A DNA stretch of 64,000 nucleotides from Akkermansiaceae bacterium (GTDB lineage: Bacteria > Verrucomicrobiota > Verrucomicrobiia > Verrucomicrobiales > Akkermansiaceae). Below the pieces are notes generated by a model, which saw only the letters and a list, made by a program, of their open reading frames with translations, was not told the origin of the DNA and searched no databases. Made by a program: the position numbers and the translations under genes. Below are positions 266 to 35,182 of the stretch, one piece after another. Every line of letters starts with the position of its first letter. Position 1 is the first letter of the stretch. The stretch is taken from positions 1 through 64,000 of the forward strand of contig JARWZU010000001.1 in the NCBI GenBank assembly GCA_029866215.1, written 5' to 3'.

Positions 266-274
266 GCGGATCGA

Positions 275-652
275 TTAAAACGGCGGCTCGTCGTCGAAGT
301 CACCATCGTCGCGAAGATCTTGGAACGATGGCTCGCCGCCTGGTGACGAGGGATTTGTTGGTTTTTTCGAGGGGTTGGGGGAGCTTGCTCCGGCGGCTTG
401 AAGCTTCCAGCAGGCAAGATTGACGTAATACTTACCGTTGTACTCGTTGCCACGGATGTCGAAGTTGACCTGAACGTCTTGGCCGATCTCGTACTCATCG
501 AGCACGGGGCACTTGTCCTTTACGACTTCAAATTTCAGGTCCTGCGGGTATTTGTCCGCAGCGGTCGTTACCACGAATTCGCGTTTGCTGAAGCCGCTGG
601 GGAAGGCTTGGGTGGAGCCGATCCATTTCAATTTTCCGGACGTTTCGTACAT
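275..652 (-). CDS. DUF3127 OB-fold-like protein with SSB-like acidic tail
   Basis: A protein of 125 residues. Residues 1-85 match the DUF3127 pattern (SGKLKWIGSTQAFPSGFSKR, then REFVVTT, a KCPVLDEY segment and VNFDIRGNEYNGKYYVNLACW), a small beta-rich family thought to resemble the single-stranded DNA-binding OB fold. A Pro/Ser/Gly linker (about 88-108) leads to an acidic tip ending DFDDEPPF. This resembles the conserved C-terminal peptide of bacterial SSB, which recruits repair proteins. A nucleic-acid-binding role is inference. It lies 30 bp upstream of the parvulin gene on the same strand. Confidence 0.75.
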   Translation of the reverse strand: MYETSGKLKWIGSTQAFPSGFSKREFVVTTAADKYPQDLKFEVVKDKCPVLDEYEIGQDVQVNFDIRGNEYNGKYYVNLACWKLQAAGASSPNPSKKPTNPSSPGGEPSFQDLRDDGDFDDEPPF

Positions 653-682
653 GCGTGGATTCTTTCGAAACGCTGGGCGATG

Positions 683-1729: not shown

Positions 1730-1739
1730 CGTGGTGATT

Positions 1740-2777
1740 CTAACGAATTTCTACGGTCGTGCCGGGGCGGACGAGGGTGGGGAGGCGGACTGCATCCCAA
1801 TTCGCCATGCGGATGCATCCGTGGCTGCGGGCGCGGCCGATGGTTTCTGGGTTAGGCGTGCCGTGCATGCCAACGCCCGGTTTTGTGAGACCGCACCAGA
1901 AGACGCCCACTGGGCTGTTTGGACCGGGTGGGATATTGAGTGCCTCCGACTCACTGCTGCGTTTGCCGGTTTCCAGAAGCTTGAGATCGTAGCGCCAGTA
2001 GGGGAGTTCCACCGAGTTCCTAACAGACCATGTGCCGAATTTTAGAAATCGGTCTTCGCCGGGGGTGATAGGAAATGAGGCGATGAGACCTCGATTCGGG
2101 TGAGTGGGAGTGCTCGCTTCAGATCCGGGTTCAGCAACCCGTCGTGCGGCTGGGGCGGCTTCGAAGATGCGGACTTGGTTGATCTTGGTGTCGACCACGG
2201 CATGGCGTTGGCTAATAGCTTCGTCGGTCTTGTAAATCGCACCAGTCAGACTCTCGATCATGAAGGGCTGAACGTTTGGGACCGTGATGGCATCGTGTGG
2301 TTTGAGTTTTTCGATCTTCGATTTGCCATTCAGAAGGATCAGATAATCCACATCGGTGTGATAGCGCTCCGACATGAATTCCCCGAGGCTTCGGTAGCTC
2401 ATGCGTTTGCATTTCGCCTGCAGTTCAACTTTGGTTGGCAGGGCATGGTTCACCCAATCCGTCGCGCAGGCGGGGACGATGGCGGTCGCGAGCGGGTTTG
2501 GGACCGCCTTGCGAGCTTCGTTACTTGCGGCGACCCAGTCTGTGAGCGGGTGGCCATTCGCCTCATTCCAAGATTGCACCGCGAGTTCGGTGAAGGTGCC
2601 GGGTCGGCCATCAATCACGCCGGGGCCGAATTTTGCCTCATCGAGAAAAATCTGGAGGCGGACGGCATCCTCACCGCTGGGTTTGGTTTCGTGGGGATTG
2701 GGCTCTAGGGTGGGGGTCGTTTCTCCACAAGCAAGCGCCACGAAAAGAGTGGAAATGATAGGGATGAGCCGTAGCAT
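1740..2777 (-). CDS. L,D-transpeptidase (YkuD family) lipoprotein
   Basis: A 345-residue protein from ATG at 2777. The longer upstream frame was not used, because this ATG begins a lipoprotein signal, MLRLIPIISTLFVALACGE, with Cys17 as likely lipidation site. The middle holds a peptidoglycan-binding-like region (DEAKFGPGVIDGRPGTFTE) and a LysM-like stretch (YHTDVDYLILLNG...LKPHDAITVPN). The C-terminus has the YkuD catalytic signature: His near 304 (GMHGTPN) and SHGCIRM near 318-324 with the nucleophilic Cys. Such enzymes make 3-3 peptidoglycan cross-links or attach proteins to the wall. It lies between hflX and the PPIase on the same strand. Confidence 0.88.
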   Translation of the reverse strand: MLRLIPIISTLFVALACGETTPTLEPNPHETKPSGEDAVRLQIFLDEAKFGPGVIDGRPGTFTELAVQSWNEANGHPLTDWVAASNEARKAVPNPLATAIVPACATDWVNHALPTKVELQAKCKRMSYRSLGEFMSERYHTDVDYLILLNGKSKIEKLKPHDAITVPNVQPFMIESLTGAIYKTDEAISQRHAVVDTKINQVRIFEAAPAARRVAEPGSEASTPTHPNRGLIASFPITPGEDRFLKFGTWSVRNSVELPYWRYDLKLLETGKRSSESEALNIPPGPNSPVGVFWCGLTKPGVGMHGTPNPETIGRARSHGCIRMANWDAVRLPTLVRPGTTVEIR

Positions 2778-2794
2778 GGAGTAAGGTTGTAAAA

Positions 2795-4096
2795 TTATAC
2801 GGGAATGGTTGCGAATGCTTCGAGCCGACCGGCGATGGTTGCAGGAACTACCGCCGTGACGAGGATGTCGTCTCCCTCGTAGTCGGTCGCGATGACCTTC
2901 GCCTCGCGGTGCAGGAGGCTGACGAGATCCGCGCGGTGCTGTGGGATCCGATAATCTTTCTGTTGGACCCGGTGGGAGAGTACCTCGCTGCAAGTGGCCA
3001 ACAACTCTTCAAGCCCGAGGCCAGTCACCGCCGACGCGTGGAGTGCGTGCGGGTATTTCTTTTCGAGGGCGATCAATTCAAATGGATTGGTGATGCGGTC
3101 GATTTTATTGAGGACCGTGATGATTTCCTTGTCCCCAGCACCGAGTTCTTTCAGCACCTCAAGCGTGGTGTCATGCAGTCGTTCGATTTCGTGAGAGGTC
3201 GCGTCGAGCACGTGGATTAAGAAATCTGCGAGGGTGGCTTCTTCGAGGGTGGCCTTGAATGCCTCGACGAGTCGGTGGGGAAGATTTCGCACAAATCCGA
3301 CGGTGTCCGTGATGAGGAGCGGTTGGCCATCGGGGAGCTCGATTCGGCGGGTGGTCGTGTCGAGAGTGGCGAACAGCATGTCCTTGGCCATCACGTCGGC
3401 GCCGCTGAGGATATTCAGGAGGGTGGACTTTCCTGCGTTCGTGTAACCGACGATGGCGGCATGGGGCGTGGCGAATTTCTCGCGTTCTTTGCGTTGGGTT
3501 TTCCGTTGCTGGCGGACCACCTCGATCTCTCGTTTTGCGCGATCGATCGTCTGGTACGCCAGCCGGCGGTCCACTTCGATTTGTTTTTCGCCCATGCCTC
3601 GGGACGCACCTCCGCCTGCGCCGCCGCCAGAACCTGCCGATTCTCGGTCGAGGTGACCCCACATCCGTGCGAGGCGAGGGAGGGCATACTGCATGCGAGC
3701 GAGTTCCACTTGGAGGCGAGCCTCTTTGGTTTGCGCACGTTTGGCGAAAATATCGAGGATGACTTCCTCACGGTCGATCACGCAGAGATCCGCAAGTTTT
3801 TCCCACTCGCGTTGTTGGGATGGGGCAAGGCCGTTGTCGATGACGATCACGTCGCACTCATGGGCGCGGGCGAGAGCGACCATTTCTTCAGCTTTCCCAC
3901 TGCCGCAGAGGAATTTCTTGTTTTTTTCTCGGATGCGGCAGAGGACCGACTCCACCACCGCCACGCCGAGCGTTTGGACGAGTTCGGCGAGTTCCTCGAG
4001 CAGGGATTCTGCCTCGGTCGCCTCACGGGTATCCGAGTAAAATCGCACCAGCAAGGCGCGCTCGATCATTTCTGGTTTCTCTCTGACTTCGAACAT
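2795..4096 (-). CDS. hflX: Ribosome-associated GTPase HflX
   Basis: A protein of 433 residues from ATG at 4096. The frame is open further upstream, but family length and the typical start just before IERALLV favour this ATG. The HflX N-terminal domain (about 10-150, GSGKAEEMVALA, QLE-type helix LQVELARMQYALPRL) is followed by a Gly-rich loop and helix (about 155-205). The G domain has G1 GYTNAGKST (217-225), G3 DTVGF (264-268) and G4 NKID. HflX binds the 50S subunit and splits stalled 70S ribosomes under stress. lysS diverges from it 162 bp away. Confidence 0.95.
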   Translation of the reverse strand: MFEVREKPEMIERALLVRFYSDTREATEAESLLEELAELVQTLGVAVVESVLCRIREKNKKFLCGSGKAEEMVALARAHECDVIVIDNGLAPSQQREWEKLADLCVIDREEVILDIFAKRAQTKEARLQVELARMQYALPRLARMWGHLDRESAGSGGGAGGGASRGMGEKQIEVDRRLAYQTIDRAKREIEVVRQQRKTQRKEREKFATPHAAIVGYTNAGKSTLLNILSGADVMAKDMLFATLDTTTRRIELPDGQPLLITDTVGFVRNLPHRLVEAFKATLEEATLADFLIHVLDATSHEIERLHDTTLEVLKELGAGDKEIITVLNKIDRITNPFELIALEKKYPHALHASAVTGLGLEELLATCSEVLSHRVQQKDYRIPQHRADLVSLLHREAKVIATDYEGDDILVTAVVPATIAGRLEAFATIPV

Positions 4097-4258
4097 CCGC
4101 AAGAAGCAGTAGCACTGGGGAGGGCCTTTCGCTATGGGAATTTTGGCGGAATTGGTTGATGGGCGGGTGCGATCGCCGGGGTGAAAACCAAAATCATCGG
4201 GGTGATTTCGTTTCGACGCTTGCGGGTTGCTCGCTCGCGGCGCAATTTCCCTTCCGAC

Positions 4259-5737
4259 ATGAGTGAAGCCGTCAGCCCGCAACCGCCGCAATCCACCGAA
4301 GCAGAACTGATCGCCGTTCGCCGCGAGAAACTCGCGAAACTGCGCGAACTTGGCATCGATCCGTTTGGCGCTCGGTTTGAGGTTTCGATTACCCCAGCCG
4401 ATCTCCGCGCAAATTTCGCTGAGGGACTCCAAGTCAAGGTGGCGGGTCGCATCACCGCGCTGCGTGACATGGGCAAATCCTGTTTTTTTCAACTCGCCGA
4501 CGTTCACGGCAGCATCCAAGGGTACGTCAGCATCAAGAACCTCGGAGAAACCGAAGCCGCAGCGTGGAAATGCCTCGATCGTGGTGACTGGATCGGCATC
4601 GAGGGCGAGACGTTCCTAACCAAGACCGGCGAGCCGACGGTGAAGTTGGACAAGTTCACCGTGCTTTCCAAGTCCTTGCGGCCGATGCCCGACAAGTGGC
4701 ACGGCGTGGCGGATCGGGAAATCAAATACCGCAAGCGTCACCTTGATTTGATGGGGAATCCCGACAGTGCGGCCTTGTTCGTGAAGCGCTCGTTGATGAT
4801 CGCAGAGATCCGCCGCTTCCTCCAAGACCGTGGGTTTCTTGAGGTTGAAACGCCGATGCTTCACGACGTCGCGGGTGGGGCAGCGGCTCGTCCGTTTGAG
4901 ACGCACCACAACGCGCTCGGGATGCCGCTGACCTTGAGGATCGCGCCAGAGCTTTTCCTGAAGCGCCTTCTCGTGGGCGGGTTCACCAAGATTTTTGAGC
5001 TCAACCGCAGTTTTCGGAACGAAGGGATTTCTCGGCGTCACAACCCTGAGTTCACCATGCTCGAAGCGTACTGGGCATTTTCCGATTTCGAGGAAATGGC
5101 AGATCTCGTCGAAGAACTGACGTGTCATCTCGCAGAGAAATTCTGCGGTGGCCTCCAGATCGAGCACAAGGATGAGGACGGAAATGTCACTCGCACGATC
5201 AACCTCTCGCGGCCGTGGAAGCGGGCAAGCTACCACGAGCTCATCAAGCTGGCGGCTGGGGAGGATTTCTTTGATCTCGATGCTGCCGGTCGCCGCGCGC
5301 GGTGTGAAAAGCATGGGATTCAGATTTCAGCAGGCATGGAAGACCACGAGGTGATCCAGCAAGCGTTTGAGAAGCTGGTGGAAGAGAAGACCTTTGATCC
5401 GTGCTTCGTCACGCGCGTCTCGAGTGAGTTGGTGCCTTTGGCGAAGGTTAGCCCGGGTGGTCAGACGGTCGAGGTCTACGAGCTCATCATCAATGGGCAG
5501 GAGATTTCACCAGGCTACTCAGAGCTCAATGATCCGGATGTTCAGCGCGAGCGTCTTGAGGCCCAATCGGGTGAAGAGACGCAGAAGGTGGACTATGATT
5601 TCATCGAGACCCTCGAGCATGGTATGCCACCAGCGGGTGGGATCGGCATTGGCCTTGACCGGCTTTGCATGATGCTCACGGGAGCACCTACCATTCGCGA
5701 CGTGGTCTTGTTCCCCTTGCTGAAGCGGAAGGACTGA
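4259..5737 (+). CDS. lysS: Lysyl-tRNA synthetase, class II
   Basis: A protein of 492 residues from ATG at 4259; an earlier in-frame start would add 26 residues with no family counterpart. The N-terminal anticodon-binding OB fold (about 50-150) reads VKVAGRITALRDMGKSCFF. The class II catalytic core follows, with motif 2 (RNEGISRRHNPEFTMLEAYW) and motif 3 near the C-terminus (GGIGIGLDRLCMML). It charges tRNA-Lys in the cytoplasm. Length and order match bacterial LysS. It is transcribed divergently from hflX and converges on pfp, with a hairpin between them. Confidence 0.97.
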   Translation: MSEAVSPQPPQSTEAELIAVRREKLAKLRELGIDPFGARFEVSITPADLRANFAEGLQVKVAGRITALRDMGKSCFFQLADVHGSIQGYVSIKNLGETEAAAWKCLDRGDWIGIEGETFLTKTGEPTVKLDKFTVLSKSLRPMPDKWHGVADREIKYRKRHLDLMGNPDSAALFVKRSLMIAEIRRFLQDRGFLEVETPMLHDVAGGAAARPFETHHNALGMPLTLRIAPELFLKRLLVGGFTKIFELNRSFRNEGISRRHNPEFTMLEAYWAFSDFEEMADLVEELTCHLAEKFCGGLQIEHKDEDGNVTRTINLSRPWKRASYHELIKLAAGEDFFDLDAAGRRARCEKHGIQISAGMEDHEVIQQAFEKLVEEKTFDPCFVTRVSSELVPLAKVSPGGQTVEVYELIINGQEISPGYSELNDPDVQRERLEAQSGEETQKVDYDFIETLEHGMPPAGGIGIGLDRLCMMLTGAPTIRDVVLFPLLKRKD

Positions 5738-5740
5738 AAA

Positions 5741-5766
5741 GAGATCAGGGTTTGACGCCTGATCTC
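5741..5766. terminator. Hairpin terminator between lysS and pfp
   Basis: A perfect 9-bp inverted repeat: GAGATCAGG (5741-5749), loop GTTTGACG, CCTGATCTC (5758-5766). It starts 3 bp after the lysS stop. Read on the minus strand the stem is followed by TTTT (complement of the AAAA at 5737-5740), so it best fits an intrinsic terminator for pfp. It may also stop lysS transcripts, though no T-run follows on the plus strand. Confidence 0.65.
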
Positions 5767-5814
5767 CTCACAGATTCTACTCTCGAATCACTCAAGCTGA
5801 GCGGCTCTGAGAGA

Positions 5815-7041
5815 TCAAGGATGAAGGATCTTCGGGACCTTTGGTGCGCGTAAGCGATGCGACTCCGGAAGGTTTGAGCCCAACAACGGGCGGCAATAAT
5901 TTTTGAAATCTTCGGTGACTCCATTGCCTGCAGCATTGATGAAGTTGTCAGGCATGTGACGGGTCTTTCCGGCGACCTTCTCGATCGGCACCAAGTCGTA
6001 ATCCACGCTGTAATTCAGGACTGGGCGGCGAATCACCACAGATCCGTCCACATTGTCCCACATCGCATATTGGACTGCCTTTTCACCGACCTCACGGGCT
6101 TCACGAGCGTCACGGTCGGATTGGATCCCCATGAATGAGCGTTGCAAGTAGCCGAACGTGTCCGAGCGCACGCGTTTGATGCCAAGGCCGCTGCGAATTT
6201 CGTTTGCGAGCAGATCGCCAAGGGCGCCGGTGCCTGAGAGTTGGATGTTGCCGTGGGAGTCACGCTCCTCGGTTCCTAACAATTTTGTGATCATCGCCAC
6301 GCCTTGTGGGTCGGAAATCCCTTCAGACACTGCGATCGTGCAGAGACCGTACTGCTTGTAAGTGCGTTCGACATCGCCGAGGAACTTGTCCATCTCGAAG
6401 GCTCTTTCCGGGACGTAGACCAAGTGCGGGCCTTCGTCGAAGTACTTTTGCGCCATGGAAGAGGCGGCGGTGAGGAAACCTGCGTGGCGACCCATCACCA
6501 CACCGATGTAAACGCCTTGAAGCGCGCGGTTGTCGAGGTTCACGCCAGCGAACGCCTGTGAAACGAACCGAGCGGCGGAGCCGAAGCCAGGGCAGTGGTC
6601 GTTTTCTTCGAGATCGTTGTCGATGGTCTTGGGAATGTGGATTGCTCGGAGTTCGTAATTCGCTTCCTTTGCTTGCTCGTTTACGATGCGAACGGTGTCA
6701 GAAGAGTCATTTCCTCCAACGTAGAAAAAGTAACGGATGTCATGCGCTTGCATGACCTTGAACATCCGCGCGCAGTATTCCTCATCGGGCTTGTCGCGTG
6801 TGGAAAGCAGTCCTGACGATGGAGTGCCTGAGACCTGTTCAAGGTTGTGGGTCGTCTCGCGGGTGAGATCCAGAAAGTTCTCGTCGATGATCCCGCGCAC
6901 GCCGTGGATGGCTCCGTAAACGGAAGTCACTTGGCTAAACTTGCGGGCCTCGAGGGCGACGCCGACGACACTTTGGTTGATTACAGGGGTGGGGCCGCCA
7001 CCTTGGGCGACTAGAACTTTACCTTCCAAACGATTACTCAT
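5815..7041 (-). CDS. pfp: Diphosphate-dependent 6-phosphofructokinase
   Basis: A protein of 408 residues from ATG at 7041 (MSNRLEGKVLVAQ); a start 9 codons earlier is possible. The phosphofructokinase fold is shown by GGGPTPVIN (14-22), GGNDS (109-113), PKTIDND (137-143) and GRHAGF. Asp at the fourth position of GGNDS, where ATP enzymes have Gly, and the KTIDND segment are the known marks of pyrophosphate use. The third residue is Asn rather than the usual Asp, a variant I associate with some PPi-PFK subgroups. The enzyme would phosphorylate fructose 6-phosphate reversibly. A hairpin lies just beyond its stop. Confidence 0.9.
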   Translation of the reverse strand: MSNRLEGKVLVAQGGGPTPVINQSVVGVALEARKFSQVTSVYGAIHGVRGIIDENFLDLTRETTHNLEQVSGTPSSGLLSTRDKPDEEYCARMFKVMQAHDIRYFFYVGGNDSSDTVRIVNEQAKEANYELRAIHIPKTIDNDLEENDHCPGFGSAARFVSQAFAGVNLDNRALQGVYIGVVMGRHAGFLTAASSMAQKYFDEGPHLVYVPERAFEMDKFLGDVERTYKQYGLCTIAVSEGISDPQGVAMITKLLGTEERDSHGNIQLSGTGALGDLLANEIRSGLGIKRVRSDTFGYLQRSFMGIQSDRDAREAREVGEKAVQYAMWDNVDGSVVIRRPVLNYSVDYDLVPIEKVAGKTRHMPDNFINAAGNGVTEDFKNYCRPLLGSNLPESHRLRAPKVPKILHP

Positions 7042-7183
7042 GACGCTGAGAGGATTGAGAATCCTCACCGAGATGCAAGCCTTGAAAGAGTGATCTGATG
7101 AAAAGTGTAATTGATTCTGCGTTGTGAGTCTGAGGAAATCGCGATAGGCTTGATTTCTGAGTGGAGCGGAAGAACAACTGCGG

Positions 7184-7726
7184 GTGAATGATCCGTGCCC
7201 CTGGCTGCCGAGGGTGACGGAGGTTCATGATGTTTCGATCACTCGTCGGCATGGTGAATCTAAGGGCTTGGATTTCTATTTGGACGCTTTGCGGTATGCG
7301 CAGTCGCAATGGGTCACAGGAAAGCCAGCTCAAGCGTTGTTGCAGCTGAATAAGGCTTGGATGGCGGATCTTCGTTTTGATGATTCCACCATGAGTTTGG
7401 ATTCACATCCTTACCGGGCTTTGGTTTGGATTTTGGCACGGGCATCAACGCAGGACTGCGGGTATTTGGGGAATCCGGTTCGGCATTTTCAACACCTCGC
7501 GAGCCGGATGCGTGGTCCAAGGACTGAAATTCGAGTCTGGCGTGCGTGGGTCTGTTTTCATCTTGCGGAGCGCGTCCTTTGCCCTAATGAATTTCCGAGG
7601 GATGTGAGACAGATCGTCCGTGAGGGGATTTGGATTCCCCATTTCCAACGCGCACGCTACGAAATCTCCAAGAGTGGGTGGGCAAGTGAATGTCGATCTA
7701 ACATGATGCTAGATGTGGTGCCCTAG
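7184..7726 (+). CDS. Conserved hypothetical protein (180 aa)
   Basis: A GTG-initiated frame of 180 residues, divergent from pfp. I do not recognise a named family. It is rich in Trp and Arg, has no signal peptide or membrane segment, and reads as a soluble helical protein (DALRYAQSQWVTGKPAQALLQLNKAW resembles a TPR-like helix pair when read as two halves). Its amino-acid composition looks like a real protein and the opposite strand has only short frames. It ends 13 bp before the convergent efflux-lipoprotein gene. Confidence 0.6.
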   Translation: MNDPCPWLPRVTEVHDVSITRRHGESKGLDFYLDALRYAQSQWVTGKPAQALLQLNKAWMADLRFDDSTMSLDSHPYRALVWILARASTQDCGYLGNPVRHFQHLASRMRGPRTEIRVWRAWVCFHLAERVLCPNEFPRDVRQIVREGIWIPHFQRARYEISKSGWASECRSNMMLDVVP

Positions 7727-7739
7727 ATGTTGAGCCGAC

Positions 7740-9143
7740 TCAACCTTTCACGCTCCATCCTCCGCCGAGTGCTTTGGCGAGGGCCGCGAGTGTGATCCGC
7801 TGCTGGGCCTCAAGTTGGCTTAGCACCAAGCGAACTTGCAGGACCCCACGTTCGGCATCGACCACCTCGAAGTAGCTCGTCAATCCCTTGTCGTAGCGCT
7901 CTTGTGAGAGGCGGCGGGTTTCTTGTGAGCTGGTGAGAGCCAGTTCAAGTGCGGCACGCGACTTCGCGAGTCCCTTGAGGTCCACGAGTGCGTCCTCCAC
8001 CTCACGGAGCGCGATCAGCAAGGTCTGGCGGTAGGTTGCGAGCGCTTCATCGTAGCGGCTGCGAGAGGCTTTGTAGATCGCTTGGTTGAATCCTCCATCT
8101 AATAGAGGGGCGGCTGCGCCTGCACCGAGTGAGAGCACCCGATTTTCCCAGTCCAAGAAGCGATTGAAATCCACCGACTCAAGACCTGCGCCGGCGGTGA
8201 GATTGAAATTTGGGTAGAAGTTTGCCTCAGCGACGCCGATGCGGGCGTTGGCGGCGCGGAGGTTTTCCGCTGCGGCGCGGACGTCTGGGCGGCGATTGAG
8301 TACCTCAGCAGGAAGCCCTGGGAGGATGGTGGGAAGTTTCCGACTTGATCGAAGTTGGGGGATCGAAAATTCCGATGGAGCCGTGCCGCAAAGAACTGCG
8401 AGTGCGTGTTCTGCGGACCCGCGCTGGCGTTGGACGAGGCCGATATCATTTTCTGCGAGTTGCACTTCCGTGCGGGCACGGCTGGATGCGAGGCCGTCGA
8501 TGAGGCCGGCGGCGAGCTTCGAATCTTGGATCGAGAGCGCATCTTGGCGACTTTTGAGCGTGCTGATGAGGACAGCGTTTTGGGCATCGAGTCCGCGCAG
8601 AAGGAAATACTGGCGGGCGACCTCGGTGGCGACGCCGAGGCGCTGAGAATCGAGTAATGCGAGTTTATTGAACGACTCTGCGGTCGATGCTTCGACACTG
8701 CGTTTGTTGCGCCCCCAGAGGTCAGGGTCGTAGGCGAGGTTGAACGAGCTTCGGTAGTTCTCTGAGCTGAGGCTGACGTTTGCACCTGCTGGAAGATTCG
8801 CTCTTAGGGCATCGGCAGAGCTTCGAGAAACGCCAGCGCTTCCTGATAGATTGAGGGTTGGAAAAAGTTTGGCACGATCAGCCCCAACTAAAGCGCGAGA
8901 AGTTTCCACGCGGGCCTTTGCCGCAGCGATTTCGGGATTTGCGGCCTCTGCCCTCTCGATTAAGCGCGTGAGCTCCGGATCATCAAACAGCCTCCACCAA
9001 GTGTCTGGTGCAGGCTGGGCGGCTACGGGTTTTGACTCCCGCCAGTTGGAGAGTGTTGGTAGCTCGGGTAACTTGAAATTTGGACCAAGCGTGCAAGAGC
9101 CAAGTGCGAATGCAGCCGGCAGAATGAGAAATTGAGGTTTCAT
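7740..9143 (-). CDS. Outer-membrane efflux lipoprotein, NodT/TolC type
   Basis: A protein of 467 residues. The lipoprotein signal MKPQFLILPAAFALGSC places the lipidated Cys at 17. Two outer membrane efflux (OEP) repeats follow; the conserved parts include LGPNFKLPELP after the Cys, PDTWWRLFDDPEL, and YRQTLLIALREVEDALVDL. It would form the trimeric outer-membrane channel. The start codon overlaps the stop of the upstream HlyD-family gene by 4 bp, so it is translationally coupled into an exporter operon (permease, ATPase, adaptor, channel). Confidence 0.92.
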   Translation of the reverse strand: MKPQFLILPAAFALGSCTLGPNFKLPELPTLSNWRESKPVAAQPAPDTWWRLFDDPELTRLIERAEAANPEIAAAKARVETSRALVGADRAKLFPTLNLSGSAGVSRSSADALRANLPAGANVSLSSENYRSSFNLAYDPDLWGRNKRSVEASTAESFNKLALLDSQRLGVATEVARQYFLLRGLDAQNAVLISTLKSRQDALSIQDSKLAAGLIDGLASSRARTEVQLAENDIGLVQRQRGSAEHALAVLCGTAPSEFSIPQLRSSRKLPTILPGLPAEVLNRRPDVRAAAENLRAANARIGVAEANFYPNFNLTAGAGLESVDFNRFLDWENRVLSLGAGAAAPLLDGGFNQAIYKASRSRYDEALATYRQTLLIALREVEDALVDLKGLAKSRAALELALTSSQETRRLSQERYDKGLTSYFEVVDAERGVLQVRLVLSQLEAQQRITLAALAKALGGGWSVKG

Positions 9144-27646: not shown

Positions 27647-29596
27647 ATGATTGACGACGCCTTCCTCCGTCAGGTCGCCGCACTGCAGGCGAATCTCAAA
27701 ATGCTCGAGTCCCAGTCGGACGCACTGAGCGATCTCGCAGACATGAAGGAGCTTCGGCTCTACAAAGCGCACCTCACCGACTACATCGAGGCTCACGCCA
27801 GCGCAGGGGATCTGCCACGCGATCCGTTTCAAGCCATTGAACAACGCCTCAGCGCCTTGTCCGAGTTTTTCGCGGCGGCGGATCAGGAATGTAAACGCCT
27901 GAATAGCTGGAAAGCCGATTGGCTCAATTCCGTCCCAGCGGTGGGTCTCGCCGACCTACAATCCGCAAGGACGGAGCTGGCCGAGTTGGTCGCGGAGGTT
28001 CCGCAGATTCAGGATCGGCTCCGGCAGAGGCTGTCACCACTGGATTGGGATACCTCCTCGGCCACGGTGGATCTTCATGCGGAGTTGCTGGCCTGCGCCC
28101 AATGCGCAAGTGGCTTGAAACTTCCGCTAAAGACGGATAGCCGACAGAAACTCTATCAATTCGCCCGCGGTGAGTGGGCTCACGCAATGGAAACTTCGGC
28201 TCATCTCACCGCCATGGGTCTGAGAATCGAGGAGTTGATTGCGCTCCACGCGGATCATGTAAAGACCGTTGCCGAAGGTGAGGCCCTGCTCGCGAAACAG
28301 AACTTCCGGAGGGTCGGGAAGATGCTTGAAGAAATCGGCAGAAACAAATTCTCCGACATCCATTATTCCAATTTGGAATCGGGGTTAAAGAAGCAACTGG
28401 CCTTGGTGGGGAGGTTTGCCGCGTTGGCTTCGTCCATCAAAGAGCGATTGAGCAAGGGAGAGCTCAAGGCAGTGACAGAAGAACTGAGAGAATTGAGCGC
28501 TCTTGCGGGCAATCCGGCCTCTGAATTTGGGCATGAAACCTCAGAACTGCTGAAAGATGCGGACGCTCAGATGGCCTCGTTTCTCCGAGGACGTAGAAAG
28601 ACCCGTAACGACGCAACGGTGTTATTGGTTGTCGGATTAGTAGGGGCGGTTGCCCTAGCTGGGTATGTGATCAAGGAGGATAAGAAGGCAACTCTAGCAA
28701 AAATCGAAGCAATGGCCAGGGCGGAGCGGGAAGCCGGTGAAGCTGCTGAAGCCAAAGCCAAGGCGGAGCAGGAAGCTGCTGAAGCCAGAGCTAAGGCGGA
28801 GCAGGAAGCTGCTGAAGCAAAAGCCAAAGCTGATAAGCAAGCCGCTGAGGCAAAGGCCAAACTCCTCGCCGAGATCAGCGCTGGGCGAGTAGGAGCCACC
28901 TTGGGTGTGCCGTTGGCTGGAAAGGCGATCATGACTTTTGCCTTTTGTCCTGCGGGTAGCTTTGAGATGCATATTTCGTTAGGGGGATTTATACTACCTG
29001 GTGAAGAAAATCGGCCTAAGGTCACATTGAGCAAAGACTTCTGGATGGCCAAGACTGAAGTCACAGGGACCCAATGGTGTGCGGTGATGGGCGGTAATCC
29101 AAGCGACTCCGAAGGTGATGAACTGCCGCATGATTACGTGAGTTGGAATAATGCCAAAGATTTCATCAAAAAGATGAACGACAGCGGCTGTATTCCCGAT
29201 GGCTGGGCGATGGCCCTACCGACGGAAGCGCAGTGGGAATATTCCTGCCGAGCTGGTGAGACGGGGCCCTATTCAGGAGGCACGCGGGAACAGGTGGCTT
29301 GGCATGGTGGAAACAGCGAGAATAAGACTCACCCAGTCGGCACTAAGAAGCCAAATGCTTGGGGGCTGCACGACATGCATGGTAATGTGTCGGAATGGTG
29401 CGCGGATTGGTATGGAAACACCTTCACCTTGCCGGGCGGCACGGATCCCTCGGGGCCTTCAACAGGCGTCGACCGCTCACTTCGCGGAGGATCATGGATC
29501 ACCCCAGACTGTCGCGCGGACTCCCGGGGTTGGAGCCGTCCGGATGCCCGGGACTATTCCATAGGCTTCCGCCCTGCCCTAGTTCCATCCAAGTGA
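27647..29596 (+). CDS. Coiled-coil, transmembrane, FGE-sulfatase (SUMF1) protein, copy 1
   Basis: A protein of 649 residues. Residues 1-320 form a mostly helical, soluble region with a Cys pair (LACAQCASG near 150). One membrane helix (about 322-341, ATVLLVVGLVGAVALAGYVI) follows, then an Ala/Glu/Lys stalk (about 358-412) with tandem 11-residue units such as AEQEAAEARAK. The C-terminal FGE/SUMF1 domain (about 425-649) has FWMAKTEVTGTQWCAVMGGNPS, LPTEAQWEYSCRAGE, NAWGLHDMHGNVSEWCADWYG and RGGSW...GFRP. It is probably a membrane-anchored display of a C-type-lectin-like fold. Whether it has formylglycine-generating activity is unlikely to be decided from sequence. Confidence 0.8.
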   Translation: MIDDAFLRQVAALQANLKMLESQSDALSDLADMKELRLYKAHLTDYIEAHASAGDLPRDPFQAIEQRLSALSEFFAAADQECKRLNSWKADWLNSVPAVGLADLQSARTELAELVAEVPQIQDRLRQRLSPLDWDTSSATVDLHAELLACAQCASGLKLPLKTDSRQKLYQFARGEWAHAMETSAHLTAMGLRIEELIALHADHVKTVAEGEALLAKQNFRRVGKMLEEIGRNKFSDIHYSNLESGLKKQLALVGRFAALASSIKERLSKGELKAVTEELRELSALAGNPASEFGHETSELLKDADAQMASFLRGRRKTRNDATVLLVVGLVGAVALAGYVIKEDKKATLAKIEAMARAEREAGEAAEAKAKAEQEAAEARAKAEQEAAEAKAKADKQAAEAKAKLLAEISAGRVGATLGVPLAGKAIMTFAFCPAGSFEMHISLGGFILPGEENRPKVTLSKDFWMAKTEVTGTQWCAVMGGNPSDSEGDELPHDYVSWNNAKDFIKKMNDSGCIPDGWAMALPTEAQWEYSCRAGETGPYSGGTREQVAWHGGNSENKTHPVGTKKPNAWGLHDMHGNVSEWCADWYGNTFTLPGGTDPSGPSTGVDRSLRGGSWITPDCRADSRGWSRPDARDYSIGFRPALVPSK

Positions 29597-29629
29597 TTTC
29601 TCCTAATCGAATCTTTCAGCCCATTTGTC

Positions 29630-30436
29630 ATGTCCGCCGCCAAATACACCCAGCTCCACCGTCGTCTACTTTTCCACTGGACGGGACCACGACCGGTTCG
29701 GGCGTTAAAGGACCACAATGACCGATTGGAGTACCTGAAACTCTTGGTCAGCATCCTTGACGCTGGACTTCGCTATTCGGTGCCAGAAAGCCAGCATACC
29801 GAATGGATCGAGAAGAACGAGATTCGGGCTACGCATCCGATGCTCTGCTTTAGCGAGTGGGGAGTTTCGGAATCGAATGCACATTCCGGACGCTATGGTT
29901 CCATGGGCCTTGGCTTCACCAGAAAGTTCGTGATGAATAAGGGGGGGAGACCGGTAGTCTATGTGCCCAACAGCCAGACCGACCCCTTCCGGAAGGCCCT
30001 CGTTGAAGTGATCCAAGCAGTCCGAGAGGATAGCAAAAAAAACTCCAGACTGCATCGCCATACTGACCTGCTGGCGAGTTACTTGAAATCCTACAATTTC
30101 AAAAGGGCCACTGTAAAGAAGCCGCCCAATGACGAAGGAACTGCCAAAAGCATCCGGAAAAGGGAGGCGTCCTATCAAGATGACCACCTGCTTCGCCTCG
30201 ATTTCGGTGGACTCTTCGCGAATCTCGAAGACCGCGAATGGAGGATTATTCCAAAGAAAATCGAAACACAGCCTCAGCATCTGGCGTTCAAAACGGGTGA
30301 TCTGGCGATGATTGTTTTTCCTGACCATCAAACACTCAGCCTTGCGATGCAGCACGACGAGATCATGAAGCGGATATCTATCCCCGGGCATCCAGCTGTT
30401 TGCATGGTCTCGCGCGAGGTTATCCAGAGCGTCTGA
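29630..30436 (+). CDS. AbiGi-like protein (abortive infection antitoxin family)
   Basis: A protein of 268 residues. The N-terminal 110 residues match the AbiGi pattern: LLFHWTGPRPV, a helix LVSILDAGLRYSV, PMLCFSEWGVSES, then HSGRYGSMGLGFTRKFVMNK and GGRPVVYV. AbiGi is annotated as the antitoxin of the lactococcal AbiG abortive-infection system. No obvious AbiGii toxin gene is adjacent. It lies 33 bp after an FGE gene and 33 bp before an FGE lipoprotein gene on the same strand, suggesting one operon. The assignment is by motif pattern, not by search. Confidence 0.72.
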   Translation: MSAAKYTQLHRRLLFHWTGPRPVRALKDHNDRLEYLKLLVSILDAGLRYSVPESQHTEWIEKNEIRATHPMLCFSEWGVSESNAHSGRYGSMGLGFTRKFVMNKGGRPVVYVPNSQTDPFRKALVEVIQAVREDSKKNSRLHRHTDLLASYLKSYNFKRATVKKPPNDEGTAKSIRKREASYQDDHLLRLDFGGLFANLEDREWRIIPKKIETQPQHLAFKTGDLAMIVFPDHQTLSLAMQHDEIMKRISIPGHPAVCMVSREVIQSV

Positions 30437-30469
30437 ACCCATTATTTTGAATATATGCAAAGTCGCATT

Positions 30470-32014
30470 ATGAAAACTACCACATCTCGCCTGTTGTCGC
30501 TCGCCATGCTGGCTATCGTCCCCGCCTGTTCGAAAAAGCCCGTCAATGTCACTGGGCAGGTCTTTGTTGTTACGAAGGGACGTGAAAACATCAAGATGGG
30601 CGGCTTGGAAGTCCGCGTGATCCCTGATGCTGAGTTTCTGAACATGGCCAAGGCGACGGTGCCGTGGATGCAGGAGGAAGCGCGCAAGGAGGCTCAGTGG
30701 AAGACTGACGCTGATTTCCTGACCGCTTTCATCCACGAAGTCCAGGCGATGGAGGAAGCAGCTCCCAACCCAATTCCAGAACTGCCCATCATCCGTAAGG
30801 CCATCGTGGAGGAATCAGGATCTGCCGATAGCCTTCTCAAGTCAGCTCTCTCCGCCGGCATCTTGCCGCGCGGCATGGGGATGCTGATGTCTGGCGCGTC
30901 GTCTACTTTGTCTGCATCGACGGATGCGGATGGGCGTTTCACGGTTCCCATCATAGGGAAGACCTGGTTCATCGCTGCGGGCCAGCGTGAGGTGGGCGAG
31001 CAAACGGAGGAATACCTGTGGTTGAAAGGCTTTGAGGCTCCGGCAGACGTGACAAGCGCCACCATGGCGATTTCCAACGAGGCTGACATCGATTCGGAAG
31101 ATGGGCTCTATTCACTTCTAACGCAAGTCATCGGCGCACCTGGTGAGCTGGAAGGCTTCCGAAAGGTGGAGGTTTCAGAGAAGATGAAGTCGATGGTCAC
31201 CCGTCATCGTGAAGCAGCCAACGCGGCCAAGGAAAAGTCAGAACGTGAGGCTGCAGAAGCAAAAGCCAAAGCGGAGGCTGCATACGCAGAGGCTTCTGGC
31301 AAACGGGCAGGTGAAGAAAAGATCATTGAGATAAGCCCCGGCGTAACCATGACTTTCTGCTGGTGCCCTGCGGGGAAATTTACGATGGGAAGCCCACCAT
31401 CCGAGGCCGATCGGAGCAAGGATGAGGATCAAGTAGAGGTGACGCTCAGCCGGGGTTTTTGGATGGCAAAGACGGAGGTCACCCAAGCGCAGTGGCTGGC
31501 GGTAATGGGGGCGAATCCAAGCCATTTCAAAGGCACCGACCGACCCGTCGAAGAGGTCAGCTGGGAAAATGCCCAAGAGTTTCTGTCGAAGATCAACGCG
31601 ATCGTAGGGAACTCAGATGGAGGAAAGATGGTCCTGCCGACGGAAGCGCAGTGGGAATATGCAGCGCGTGCCGGAGAAGCTGGTAGGGTTTCAGGAGGCA
31701 CGTTGGATGACGTGGCTTGGTATAGAGGCAACAGCGGGAGTGAGACTCATCCAGTAGGGACGAAGCAGCCGAATGCTTGGGGGCTACATGATATGATCGG
31801 GAACGTATCGGAGTGGTGCGCAGATTGTTATGAAAGCGAGCTTGAAGGGGGTGTTGATCCACGGGGCGCTGCTTCGGGCACGGACCGGGTGCTCCGGGGC
31901 GGCAGTTGGCTCTACTACGCGGGCTACTGCCGCGTCGCGTCCCGCTACGGCGACGGCCCGTCCTGCACGAGCGGCAGCATCGGTTTTCGTGTCGCCCGTA
32001 GTTCAGTTCCCTAG
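30470..32014 (+). CDS. FGE-sulfatase lipoprotein with DGR-like variable C-terminus
   Basis: A protein of 514 residues from ATG at 30470 (an in-frame ATG at 30455 is less likely). The lipoprotein signal MKTTTSRLLSLAMLAIVPAC puts the Cys at 20. A carboxypeptidase-regulatory-like beta domain follows (VTGQVFVVTKGR...TDADGRFTVPI), then a charged Ala-rich stalk (about 245-275). The FGE/SUMF1 domain begins near 293 (TMTFCWCPAGKFTMGSPPSE) and includes FWMAKTEVTQAQWLAVMGA, LPTEAQWEYAARAGEAG and GLHDMIGNVSEW. The last 35 residues (RVLRGGSW to GFRVARSS) have unusual NNC codons; see the separate variable-region entry. It is surface- or periplasm-anchored. Its FGE half is nearly identical to that of the gene at 33325-35148. 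Confidence 0.82.
   Translation: MKTTTSRLLSLAMLAIVPACSKKPVNVTGQVFVVTKGRENIKMGGLEVRVIPDAEFLNMAKATVPWMQEEARKEAQWKTDADFLTAFIHEVQAMEEAAPNPIPELPIIRKAIVEESGSADSLLKSALSAGILPRGMGMLMSGASSTLSASTDADGRFTVPIIGKTWFIAAGQREVGEQTEEYLWLKGFEAPADVTSATMAISNEADIDSEDGLYSLLTQVIGAPGELEGFRKVEVSEKMKSMVTRHREAANAAKEKSEREAAEAKAKAEAAYAEASGKRAGEEKIIEISPGVTMTFCWCPAGKFTMGSPPSEADRSKDEDQVEVTLSRGFWMAKTEVTQAQWLAVMGANPSHFKGTDRPVEEVSWENAQEFLSKINAIVGNSDGGKMVLPTEAQWEYAARAGEAGRVSGGTLDDVAWYRGNSGSETHPVGTKQPNAWGLHDMIGNVSEWCADCYESELEGGVDPRGAASGTDRVLRGGSWLYYAGYCRVASRYGDGPSCTSGSIGFRVARSSVP
31910..31981 (+). other. Putative DGR variable region (VR)
   Basis: Twenty-four codons after the TGG of RGGSW. Twenty end in C and the other four are GCG, GCG, CCG and ACG, whereas the same gene just upstream uses mixed third bases. 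The positions that vary in this fold read CTC, TAC, TAC, GGC, TAC, TCC, TAC, GGC, GAC, GGC, TGC, AGC, GGC and AGC. That is what adenine-specific mutagenesis of AAC codons in a template repeat would give. The framework (CRVA, R, PS, IGFRV) keeps invariant codons. No reverse transcriptase or template repeat occurs in the window, so the retroelement would have to act in trans. Confidence 0.6.
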
Positions 32015-32159
32015 CACAGCAAGCTGCGGAGCGAACGGAACGGAGCCAGCGGAGCGAGGGACGAGCGGAGAAGGCGGAGTGAAGGGAGTGAAGTGTCTTC
32101 GATTCCCGCGCTGCGGGTGGATTTTTTGGATCAGAAATCATCACTACCACCCGCAAGCA

Positions 32160-32612
32160 CTATTTTGTCTCTGTAATCGCCTTGGCGGATCCGGTCTTCA
32201 CCCCGTATTTGGTATCGTAAACCTTGGACACGCCGTTCTTGTCCTTTTCGATGATCTGGGTGGGAGAGCCGGTCTTCACCCCATACTTCGCGTCGTAAAC
32301 CTTCGAAACCCCGTTCTTATCCCTCTCGATGATCTGGGTGGGAGAGCCGGTCTTCACCCCGTACTTCGCGTCGTAAACCTTGGATACACCGTTCTTGTCA
32401 GTCTCGATGATCTTGGCCGGAGAGCCAGTCTTCACCCCGTATTTGGTATCGTAAACTTTGGACACGCCGTTCTTGTCCGTCTCGATGATTTTGGCGGGAG
32501 ATCCGGTTTTGACGCCGTATTTGGCGTCGTAAACTTTGGACTCCGACTTCTGCTGCGCCTGCGACGTTGCGGCGGTTGCGATGAGGGTCGCGGTGATGAG
32601 GGAAACTTTCAT
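32160..32612 (-). CDS. Secreted protein of five 26-residue repeats
   Basis: A protein of 150 residues from ATG at 32612; upstream in-frame starts lack support. A signal peptide (MKVSLITATLIATAATSQAQ) is followed from residue 25 by five units of SKVYDxKYGVKTGSPxxII (plus ExDKNGV), the fifth shortened (GSAKAITETK). Unit variation is limited to A/T, AK/TQ and T/R/K. I do not recognise the family. The gene is in the opposite orientation to both flanking FGE genes and its stop converges on the FGE lipoprotein gene 145 bp away. Confidence 0.7.
   Translation of the reverse strand: MKVSLITATLIATAATSQAQQKSESKVYDAKYGVKTGSPAKIIETDKNGVSKVYDTKYGVKTGSPAKIIETDKNGVSKVYDAKYGVKTGSPTQIIERDKNGVSKVYDAKYGVKTGSPTQIIEKDKNGVSKVYDTKYGVKTGSAKAITETK
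32163..32540 (-). repeat. 78-bp tandem coding repeats
   Basis: Four full units of 78 bp and one partial unit of 66 bp encode the 26-residue repeats of the secreted protein. Neighbouring units are nearly identical at DNA level, including silent positions, which suggests recent amplification or ongoing unequal exchange. The period is in frame (26 codons). Confidence 0.8.
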
Positions 32613-32859
32613 ATTAAAATCTGATTGTAGATTGGATGATGGGCAGGGAATTTGCTTTTGGCTGTTGGTTTTTGAATCAATCCGCTGGGCTCTAATTGGC
32701 CAAAGAAGGGGAATTGAGTATAGGAATAGTATGAGCAAGGGGCCCAATCTTGTCAATGATCGGGCAGCATGGAATAGGCTTCCGCCACCCTCCCTGGTAT
32801 CCGCCATCATTGAGGAGGCCTGCGGAAAACCCAGCCTGCGGCTCCTCATTTTTTTGATC
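32613..32859. other. Intergenic region upstream of the repeat-protein gene
   Basis: About 250 bp between the divergent repeat-protein gene and the second leader copy. It must hold the promoter of the minus-strand gene, but no clear -35/-10 pair stands out. A candidate hairpin is 32817-32845: AGGCCTGCGG and, farther on, the reverse CCAGCCTGCGGCT region with an AT-rich end (CATTTTTTTG at 32847-32856), which could terminate plus-strand transcripts ahead of the leader. Confidence 0.35.
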
Positions 32860-32934
32860 GGCGCTGCACTCTCAAGCCTGCTGAATCATTTTAGCCATTA
32901 GGGGTCTGAAATAGGAATTGTCAGGGCCTAATAT
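32860..32934 (+). promoter_or_regulatory. Duplicated 75-bp leader, copy 2
   Basis: This copy matches 27181-27255 in 73 of 75 positions. The inverted repeat arms are 32897-32909 (ATTAGGGGTCTGA) and 32921-32932 (TCAGGGCCTAAT). Conservation stops at 32934, although downstream coding sequence becomes similar again about 60 bp later. It probably drives the second coiled-coil/FGE pair with the same control as the first. Confidence 0.6.
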
Positions 32935-32953
32935 GCAATTTAATGTTAGTGAG

Positions 32954-33298
32954 ATGAATGTTCTAAAAGATACTTTCAGCCGCAAGGATGGGACGCTAAA
33001 TGCCATGGGCCACATGGCGGCGATCAATCAGCGCACTCAACAGATCGCCCAGCAGAAAAAACAGGCAGTGGCGATCCGCGCCAAAACGGCGGCGCTGGAA
33101 GCCGCCAACCGCAACGAGGCAGACCGCACCAAAATCGAAAAACAGCGCCTCGTCATCGAGCAAGAGCGCCTCAAGGCAGAGGAGGCAGAGCACGAGATGC
33201 GCAAGCAACAGGCGGAGTTGGCCAAGCAGTTGCGTAGCTTCATGGCTGACAGCTTCGTTGCACTCGAGCGTCTCGAAAAAATCCGCACCGCACACTGA
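32954..33298 (+). CDS. Small coiled-coil protein, copy 2
   Basis: A protein of 114 residues from ATG at 32954, paralogous to 27275-27619. From DGTLNAMGHMAAI onward the two are very similar, with conservative changes (QQKKQAVAIRAKTAALEAAN). The first 13 residues differ more (MNVLKDTFSRK against MSDLQDSFNRN). It is a soluble, entirely helical, charged coiled coil of unknown function. It ends 26 bp before the next FGE gene, repeating the arrangement of the first unit. Confidence 0.7.
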   Translation: MNVLKDTFSRKDGTLNAMGHMAAINQRTQQIAQQKKQAVAIRAKTAALEAANRNEADRTKIEKQRLVIEQERLKAEEAEHEMRKQQAELAKQLRSFMADSFVALERLEKIRTAH

Positions 33299-33324
33299 AA
33301 CCCTCTTTCCGAAACCTACCCCAA

Positions 33325-35148
33325 ATGATCGACGATACACTCCTCCGCCAGGTCGCCGTGCTGCAGGCGAGTCTCAAAATGCTCGAGTCCCAGTCGGACG
33401 TGCTGAGTGATCCCGCAGACATGAAGGAGCTGGGGCTCTACAAGTCCCGCTTGTCCGACTACATCGAGGCTCAGGTCCGCGCAGGGGATCTGCCGCGCGA
33501 TCCGTTCCAGGCCATTGAGCAACGCCTCAGCGCCTTGTCCGAGTTTTTCGCGGTGGCGGATCAAGAATTCCAGCGCCTCAAGAGCTGGAAAGCGGGTTGG
33601 ATCAATTCTGTCCCAGCGGTGGGTCTCGCCGACCTGCAATCCGCAAGGACCGAACTGGCCGAGTTGGTCGCGGAGGTTCCACACATTCAGGAGCGCCTCG
33701 CGCAGCGGTTGTCACCACTGGACTGGAATGACTCGCTGGACCTCCATGCGGAACTTCTCGCCTGCGCCCAGTGCGTGAGTTGTGGTGAGAAACTTCCGCA
33801 ACATGCGAAATGGCGCCAGAAACCTTATCAATTCACCCGCGGTGAGGGGGATTACGCCAAGGAAACTTCGGCTCATTTCACCGCCATGGGCTTGAGAATC
33901 GACGGGTTGATCGCACTTCATGCGGCTCATGTGAAGGCCTTGGCCGACACCGAGCATTACCTTTCAAATGACGCGATCCGGAGTGCGGAAAAGTCATTTC
34001 TAGGCATGGGGAAAGACAGATTTTCTGACGTCGATTATACGCCGGTAGAGTCACGGCTCGCAAAGGTCCTCAGCGTGTTCGTGCAATTCAAGAGCCTGGA
34101 TGCATCACTCGATCAGCGTCTTGAAACGAACGAATCCAAAGCCATCGATGCAGAGCTCGATCAGTTGCGCGGACTGACCGCCAAGCCGGATTCGGAGTTG
34201 GCTCGGGAGACCATGGCCCTCCTGCAGGGCTTCGAGTCTCGTGTCGCTGCTGCGCGAAAGGCCCGTAAAAAGCGCAAAGTGAGGAACTTCACCGTGATGT
34301 CGCTGCTCGCGTTGGCTGTTCCAGCTGCTACGTCATTGGTGTTCAACGAGTACGCCAAGGCAGGAGGCAAAGCGGTTTTCGCAAAGGAAAAAGCGGAGGC
34401 AGCATACGCAAAGTCCTCTGGCAAGCGGGCAGGTGAAGAAAAGGTCATTCAGATAAGCCCCGGCGTAACCATGACCTTCTGCTGGTGCCCTGCGGGGAAA
34501 TTTACGATGGGGAGCCCACCATCCGAGGCCGATCGGAGCAAGGATGAGAATCAAGTAGAGGTGACGCTAAGCCGGGGTTTTTGGATGGCGAAGACTGAGG
34601 TCACCCAAGCGCAGTGGCAGGCGGTGATGGGGGCGAATCCAAGTCATTTCAAAGGCACCGACCGACCCGTCGAAAATGTCAGTTGGAATGATACCCAAGT
34701 GTTTCTGACGAAGGTCAACGCCCTGGTGGGAAGTTCGGATGGAGGTAAAATGGCCCTGCCGACGGAAGCTCAATGGGAGTACGCGGCGCGGGCAGGGGAC
34801 ACCGGGCCGTTTTCGGGAGGCACACTCGATGAGGTGTCTTGGAATTGTCAAAATAACCAAGAAAGGACTCATCCAGTTGGCACGAAGAAGCCGAATGCTT
34901 GGGGATTGCACGATGTGCATGGGAATGTGGCGGAGTGGTGCTGGGACTTGTATGGTACCCATGAAACCGAGTCGCTGACGGATCCACAGGGGGCTACTTC
35001 GGGCACGAACCGGATGCTCCGGGGTGGCTGTTGGGGCGGCAAGCCGATCTACAGCCGCGCTGCGTTCCGCGGCAATAACCTCCCGTCCAGCGCGATGCAA
35101 TACTTCGGGTTCAGGGTGGCCCGCAGTTCAGTTCTTCAGAGCCAGTAG
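33325..35148 (+). CDS. Coiled-coil, transmembrane, FGE-sulfatase protein, copy 2 (mosaic)
   Basis: A protein of 607 residues. Residues 1-320 parallel the first copy (MIDDTLLRQVAVLQASLKML, DPFQAIEQRLSALSEFFAVA, a Cys-containing segment LACAQCVSCG). One membrane helix is at about 322-341. The stalk and FGE half (about 358-607: GKRAGEEKVIQISPGVTMTF, FWMAKTEVTQAQWQAVMGA, LPTEAQWEYAARAGD, GLHDVHGNVAEWCWDLYG) instead closely match the lipoprotein at 30470-32014. The C-terminus RGGCWGGKPIYSRAAFRGNN is unlike either relative and also carries many NNC codons (GGC, GGC, ATC, TAC, AGC, TTC, GGC, AAC, CTC, AGC, TAC, TTC), so it may be a second variable region. Confidence 0.8.
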   Translation: MIDDTLLRQVAVLQASLKMLESQSDVLSDPADMKELGLYKSRLSDYIEAQVRAGDLPRDPFQAIEQRLSALSEFFAVADQEFQRLKSWKAGWINSVPAVGLADLQSARTELAELVAEVPHIQERLAQRLSPLDWNDSLDLHAELLACAQCVSCGEKLPQHAKWRQKPYQFTRGEGDYAKETSAHFTAMGLRIDGLIALHAAHVKALADTEHYLSNDAIRSAEKSFLGMGKDRFSDVDYTPVESRLAKVLSVFVQFKSLDASLDQRLETNESKAIDAELDQLRGLTAKPDSELARETMALLQGFESRVAAARKARKKRKVRNFTVMSLLALAVPAATSLVFNEYAKAGGKAVFAKEKAEAAYAKSSGKRAGEEKVIQISPGVTMTFCWCPAGKFTMGSPPSEADRSKDENQVEVTLSRGFWMAKTEVTQAQWQAVMGANPSHFKGTDRPVENVSWNDTQVFLTKVNALVGSSDGGKMALPTEAQWEYAARAGDTGPFSGGTLDEVSWNCQNNQERTHPVGTKKPNAWGLHDVHGNVAEWCWDLYGTHETESLTDPQGATSGTNRMLRGGCWGGKPIYSRAAFRGNNLPSSAMQYFGFRVARSSVLQSQ

Positions 35149-35182
35149 GCGGAAAGCAGGAAATTCCTGCCGCTGCGATGGG

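What the first reader, a model, noticed from the sequence alone, without database searches (positions are those of the whole stretch)
31910..31981. Variable-region codon signature of a diversity-generating retroelement in an FGE lipoprotein
Seen: the last exposed loop of the FGE lipoprotein (between RGGSW and IGFRV) uses 24 codons, of which 20 end in C, and the positions that vary in this fold read CTC, TAC, TAC, GGC, TAC, TCC, TAC, GGC, GAC, GGC, TGC, AGC, GGC and AGC, all NNC. Known: DGRs copy a template repeat whose AAC codons are mutated at adenines, and FGE/C-type-lectin folds are common DGR targets with the variable region at this C-terminal spot. Inferred: this is a DGR target. No reverse transcriptase, Avd or AAC-rich template repeat lies in the window, so the machinery would act from elsewhere or be lost. 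The gene is also a lipoprotein, so variation would be displayed on the surface.
Basis: partly seen in the sequence, partly recalled or inferred. Interest (0 to 1): 0.85.

Follow-up and report, generated by a model that had tools for sequence, protein, structure and literature searches.

The report
Orphaned hypermutation target in surface lipoprotein
The end of this surface-protein gene was written by a known bacterial hypermutation machine (a diversity-generating retroelement): a sister species and a phage-like contig carry the exact template it was copied from, but this genome's assembly no longer holds the template or the enzyme.

Summary
The loop has 20 of 24 codons ending in C, the only such window among 17,602 in the 64 kb. 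The assembly (3.03 Mb, 97.4% complete) has no reverse transcriptase and no template repeat. The template does exist in a sister species (G076, PGK 94.7% nt identical) and on an IMG/VR contig with phage tail genes (L119), each beside a DGR reverse transcriptase. Against the L119 template, 127 bases of the window (31872-31998) differ at 25 of 37 template adenines and at 0 of 90 other bases; against G076, 24 of 24 differences are at adenines, P = 2.6e-17. The flank just behind is 21% diverged, and the other FGE copies tested in this genome have 10-13 non-adenine differences. So 30455-32014 is a genuine, recently written DGR target now without its machinery: lost, supplied from elsewhere (probably a prophage), or missed in assembly. 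Orphan targets of this kind are known from Treponema denticola. Less usual: a phage-borne template that fits a chromosomal lipoprotein, up to 18 matching targets in one genome, and a conserved post-VR motif, GAGGGACGA.

The parts
30455..32014 (+). variable-protein gene (g2): putative lipoprotein with C-terminal FGE/C-type-lectin domain
   Evidence: Pfam PF03781 E 3e-44; best PDB hit is T. denticola DGR variable protein TvpA, 2y3c, E 1e-35; full-length orthologue in G011 (65%); the same architecture is a DGR target beside TR and RT in G036:C98
31872..31998 (+). variable repeat (VR), 127 nt
   Evidence: vs L119 template: 0/90 non-A sites differ, 25/37 A sites differ; vs G076 template: 24/24 differences at A, P 2.6e-17
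31910..31981 (+). 24-codon hypervariable loop, 20 codons NNC
31984..32014 (+). IMH-like 3' end of VR: GTAGTTCAGTTCCCTAG, where the templates read GCAGCTCAGTCCCGGAG (IMH*-like)
   Evidence: the G076 and L119 VRs share the VR form (AGTTCAGTTCCCTAG), and both TRs share the other form
32016..32093 (+). conserved post-VR element (about 80 nt) found behind VR genes of the genus
   Evidence: sequence model R1: one copy in this genome, E 6e-13; 28 copies in 12 genomes, 26 of them placed directly behind FGE genes; none in 5 genomes without this VR family
32056..32064 (+). GAGGGACGA motif; in cis DGR loci it is the loop of a hairpin with differing stems
   Evidence: 22/75 VR-gene 3' flanks vs 22/887 other flanks; the stem here is weak
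33325..35148 (+). paralogue g3, a decayed target of the same template type
   Evidence: 13 non-A of 32 differences vs L119 TR; FGE domain
27647..29596 (+). paralogue g1, related to the DGR variable protein of G023 (same N-terminal domain)
   Evidence: alignment

Best explanation
The 3' end of g2 (31872-31998) is the variable repeat of a diversity-generating retroelement. A DGR reverse transcriptase copied an AAC-rich template RNA (TGG AAC AAC AAC GCG AAC AAC TGC CGC GTC GCG AAC CGC AAC AAC AAC RAC CCG TCC AAC ACG AAC AAC AAC ATC GGT TTT CGT), misreading adenines, and the cDNA replaced the VR, re-aiming the ligand-binding face of an FGE/C-type-lectin lipoprotein. That the sequence came from such a template is shown by comparison. 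The retrohoming mechanism is inferred from the known family. The template and RT are absent from this assembly, so the gene is at present an orphan or remote target. Most likely it was written in trans, or before loss, by a mobile, at least partly phage-borne DGR cassette of the kind seen in G076 and L119; this step is inferred.
For: The TR in G076 and L119 explains every base of the 127-nt VR apart from adenines: 0/90 non-A vs 25/37 A sites. Changed adenines sit at codon positions 1-2 (24 of 25), with a spectrum A to G 13, T 9, C 3. The adjoining 3' flank is 21% diverged from L119 and the upstream domain only 51% nt identical to the G076 target, so the identical patch is just the TR-homologous stretch. 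G076 and L119 carry RT, VR and TR together, and L119 an HRDC-type accessory gene too. Bona fide VR/TR pairs with adenine-only differences occur in FGE genes of G023, G036, G045, G051 and G047, including a lipoprotein of g2's own architecture in G036. 17 of 73 genus genomes carry the same framework with different NNC codons. Best PDB match is TvpA, a DGR variable protein.
Against: No RT of any kind (PF00078), no DGR RT (A2 profile; the same profile rings at 1e-168 in G076), no template and no trace of the L119 tail gene in this assembly. A present-day mechanism in this cell is therefore not shown. The VR could have arrived ready-made with the gene.
Confidence: 0.93

Rival explanations
1. Orphan remnant: the cis DGR was lost from this lineage (or the gene was acquired alone by recombination) and the VR is now frozen.
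For: No RT or TR in a 97.4% complete assembly. 10 of 17 genomes with this VR framework lack a strong DGR RT hit. The FGE block 27647-35148 is absent from the syntenic place in G076, so it is a variable island. Precedent in T. denticola (PMC4891356).
Against: Zero non-A changes in 90 sites while the sister species differs at 5% of PGK sites (P about 0.007) and the 3' flank at 21%; paralogues g3 and C36 have visibly decayed. Any freezing is recent.
Confidence: 0.45
2. Remote target still served in trans by a DGR not in the assembly, on a prophage, plasmid or unbinned contig.
For: The L119 DGR sits behind tape-measure and tail genes, and related tail genes lie near DGRs or VRs in G013, G023 and G069. 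G076 and L119 cassettes are 94% identical over 3.8 kb in different contexts. Perfect framework fit. G036:C201 shows a remote VR matching a TR elsewhere in its genome (19 of 20 differences at A).
Against: Neither phage nor RT is detected here. The stem around the GAGGGACGA motif is weak here, although it is equally weak at the cis VRs of G076 and L119.
Confidence: 0.4
3. No DGR: the NNC codons are local codon bias or diversifying selection in an ordinary FGE family protein.
For: FGE paralogues without DGR features exist in the same genome.
Against: Every one of 25 differences from an existing template falls on an adenine; codon bias or selection does not predict this. The gene's own codon usage is not C-ending (26%).
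Confidence: 0.02

Closest known systems
Treponema denticola DGRs with remote and orphan TvpA-type lipoprotein targets (PMC4891356)
   Same: FGE-type C-type-lectin lipoprotein targets, HRDC accessory gene next to RT, several remote VRs, strains with VRs but no RT or TR; TvpA is the best PDB match
   Different: Different organism; here the matching template was found only in another species and on a phage-like contig
Thiohalocapsa PB-PSB1 DGRs acting in trans (PMC10907252)
   Different: There TR and target share one genome and reads show variation; here neither is shown
Thermus aquaticus prophage DGR, TaqVP (PMC6328139)
   Same: Prophage-borne DGR with FGE-type variable protein
   Different: Cis target with Avd accessory; no chromosomal lipoprotein target involved
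Bordetella phage BPP-1 DGR and its post-VR hairpin (PMC3240598)
   Same: Element behind the VR with differing stems and a conserved loop in the cis loci of this genus
   Different: BPP-1-type loops are 4 nt GRNA with 7-10 bp stems, 4-34 bp from the VR; here the conserved stretch is GAGGGACGA, and in g2 the stem is weak

Membership tests
DGR variable (target) gene | VR differs from a TR essentially only at TR adenines | tested here: met
   0/90 non-A, 25/37 A sites differ from L119 TR; G076 TR 24/24 at A. The template lies in other records, not in this genome
DGR variable (target) gene | VR at the C-terminal end of a C-type-lectin/FGE fold | tested here: met
   Pfam FGE-sulfatase, TvpA hit 1e-35. 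The AlphaFold model was too poor to use (pLDDT 48)
DGR variable (target) gene | IMH at VR 3' end that differs from IMH* of the TR | tested here: met
   VR form shared with the G076 and L119 cis VRs; TR form differs
complete DGR in this genome | template repeat present | tested here: not met
   only the VR itself matches 'VR base or A' with up to 3 mismatches; framework pattern finds no TR here
complete DGR in this genome | DGR reverse transcriptase present | tested here: not met
   PF00078 none; DGR RT profile none at E up to 1, with positive controls in relatives
complete DGR in this genome | accessory gene (Avd or HRDC) beside the RT | not tested
   not searched for in this genome; an HRDC accessory is seen in relatives (L121)
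active DGR target | site-specific variation among cells or strains at template-adenine positions | not testable with these tools
   no reads and no conspecific genome available; the locus is absent from the syntenic place in sister G076
BPP-1 type post-VR hairpin | 7-10 bp GC-rich stem with 4-nt GRNA loop | tested here: not met
   folding of the window element is no better than shuffles; conserved motif is 9 nt

The most novel reading that the evidence does not exclude
A temperate phage family of this bacterial genus carries a DGR whose template also fits chromosomal host lipoproteins, so that an incoming or resident prophage hypermutates host surface proteins in trans. Targets would be marked by a shared 3' element with the GAGGGACGA motif, and the machinery would come and go with the phage, leaving orphan VRs such as this one.
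Probability: 0.3. Interest if true: 0.75.

Novelty: new member of a known kind. Interest (0 to 1): 0.52.

Why it matters
It shows that a DGR target can be recognised from codon shape alone in a genome with no reverse transcriptase, and confirmed against a template in another species. It suggests that counting DGRs by their RTs misses targets: 10 of 17 genomes with this VR family lack a strong DGR RT hit. If the phage link holds, host surface proteins may be re-diversified by passing prophages.

Tried and rejected
(1) Codon bias or chance: rejected and, decisively. (2) A hidden or decayed template or RT in the own genome: searched by Pfam, by a DGR-RT profile and by an A-tolerant pattern; none. 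(3) Paralogue g3 as a control for VR-focused divergence: identity falls off gradually from about 96% to about 65% along the domain, so it gives no VR-specific signal. (4) The post-VR element as a stable DNA hairpin: not in g2, G076 or G013 (z positive); clear hairpins only in some cis loci (G074, G036, G075:C470, G086). (5) genome-contig search by protein gave only distant homologues. (6) Phage and plasmid collections: no DNA match to the VR; among viral contigs only L119 has the framework. (7) AlphaFold model: mean pLDDT 48, VR region about 25, not used.

Full report
1. Observation. g2 (30455-32014, +) encodes 519 aa with a lipobox-like start (LAIVPAC-SKK) and a C-terminal FGE-sulfatase domain. 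The 24 codons 31910-31981 include 20 that end in C. The part of the gene before the VR has 26% such codons, and this is the only one of 17,602 24-codon windows in long ORFs of the 64 kb that reaches 20.

2. Own genome. The assembly has 3.03 Mb in 88 contigs and is 97.4% complete. It has no RVT_1 hit, no hit to a profile of five DGR RTs even at E = 1 (the same profile gives 6e-168 in G076), and no second place that matches the VR when every base may also be A. The only DNA relatives of the VR are diverged FGE paralogues on contigs C36 and C48.

3. Relatives. RT genes lie next to homologues of g2 in several relatives. An ungapped scan found classical VR/TR pairs, with no non-adenine differences within the best 70-nt window, in G023, G036 (two VRs), G045, G051 (two VRs) and G047, and a pair with two such differences in G054. 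The G036 pair includes a lipoprotein of the same architecture as g2 (alignment). So FGE proteins, including this lipoprotein type, are DGR targets in this lineage.

4. The template. The framework of g2's VR (TGG NNC NNC NNC GCG NNC NNC TGC CGC GTC GCG NNC CGC ...) occurs in 17 of 73 genomes of the genus, 18 times in G075. Two of these copies, in G074 and G076, are templates with AAC at nearly all NNC positions. The G076 template matches g2 with no non-adenine mismatch. Over 127 nt (31872-31998) there are 24 differences from the G076 template, all 24 at adenines (hypergeometric P = 2.6e-17). Against the template of viral contig L119, 25 of 37 adenines and 0 of 90 other bases differ. The match ends at an IMH-like 3' end, where g2 shares the VR form (AGTTCAGTTCCCTAG) with the cis VRs of G076 and L119, not the template form (AGCTCAGTCCCGGAG). 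By contrast, the paralogue g3 has 13 and the C36 copy 10 non-adenine differences.

5. How recent. G076 is a sister species: PGK is 94.7% identical in DNA and 82% at fourfold sites, and 10.5 kb from window position 35149 onward aligns at 93%. The alignment starts right behind the stop codon of g3, and G076 has an unrelated gene there, so the FGE block 27647-35148 is a variable island. The 80 nt behind the VR are 21% diverged from L119, and the upstream domain is only 51% nt identical to the G076 target. The perfect patch is thus the template-homologous stretch, as expected of recent retrohoming.

6. Where the machinery is. In L119 (IMG/VR, 50.7 kb) the cassette FGE-VR, HRDC-type accessory gene, RT, TR follows a tape-measure gene (PHROG, E 7e-18) and tail genes. 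One of the genes in that tail block is found at 86-92% in G001, G013, G023, G069 and G076, near a DGR or VR in G013, G023 and G069, and not in this genome. G076 holds a 94% identical cassette in a different context. The cassettes are therefore mobile and at least partly phage-borne. I infer that g2 was written in trans or before the loss of such an element. Which of the two cannot be decided here, and an assembly gap is possible.

7. A target-side element. Behind the VR stop codon lies an about 80-nt sequence (32016-32093) shared by VR genes of the genus. A sequence model finds 28 copies in 12 genomes, of which I could place 26 directly behind FGE genes; none occur in the five tested genomes without this VR family. 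It contains GAGGGACGA, which occurs (one mismatch allowed) in 22 of 75 VR-gene 3' flanks against 22 of 887 other flanks. In the cis DGRs of G074, G036, G075:C470 and G086 this motif is the loop of a hairpin with differing stems. This recalls the hairpin/cruciform of BPP-1 (PMC3240598), whose loop is 4-nt GRNA. In g2, G076 and L119 the stem is weak, so a hairpin there is not supported.

8. Place among the known. Orphan VRs in strains without RT, HRDC accessory genes and lipoprotein FGE targets are described for T. denticola (PMC4891356), and trans action was argued from the same kind of match in Thiohalocapsa (PMC10907252). The gene is a DGR target by the defining sequence test; this genome does not hold a complete DGR. 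The literature search was limited to open-access papers. I found no report of a phage-borne template that fits a chromosomal lipoprotein, but absence there proves little.

Noticed in passing
L119 (IMGVR_UViG_3300042402_007908) about 138-8300: DGR cassette with FGE target, HRDC-type accessory, RT and TR directly behind tape-measure and tail genes; a 94% identical cassette sits in a different context in G076 (L120).
   Followed up: partly
G075, contigs C21, C62, C93, C100, C107, C128, C135, C138, C141, C189, C207, C216, C325, C369: One 12.6-Mb genome has 18 copies of this VR framework and 19 copies of the post-VR element, with one strong DGR RT (C470); the template for the 18 VRs was not seen.
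   Followed up: partly
window 32016-32093; L198-L225: Conserved post-VR element with GAGGGACGA, a hairpin loop in cis DGR loci; a candidate target-recognition signal unlike the 4-nt GRNA loops of BPP-1-type DGRs.
   Followed up: partly
window 30455-32014 vs L071 5353-6879: The orthologous lipoproteins of this genome and G011 (71% nt) end in VRs of two different template types (VARSSVP vs PVLVPSE ends), as if the VR and 3' flank had been exchanged.
   Followed up: no
window 29630-30436: AbiGi-like gene (Pfam PF10899 E 3e-10, PADLOC E 9e-12) between two FGE variable-protein paralogues.
   Followed up: no
window 27647-35148: Island of three FGE paralogues whose right edge (35149) is exactly where synteny with sister species G076 begins.
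   Followed up: partly
window g2 residues 285-356 vs g3: g2 and g3 are about 93-96% identical in DNA over about 70 codons and about 65% near the C-terminus, suggesting gene conversion.
   Followed up: no
window 32191-32541: 78-bp tandem repeat (4.5 copies) inside a small protein gene on the minus strand (32160-32849).
   Followed up: no
L073 (G017:C46) 5322-5852: FGE VR with 19 of 21 differences at adenines of the G023 template, followed by a shortened DGR accessory-like ORF; no RT of this type in that genome, another orphan.
   Followed up: partly
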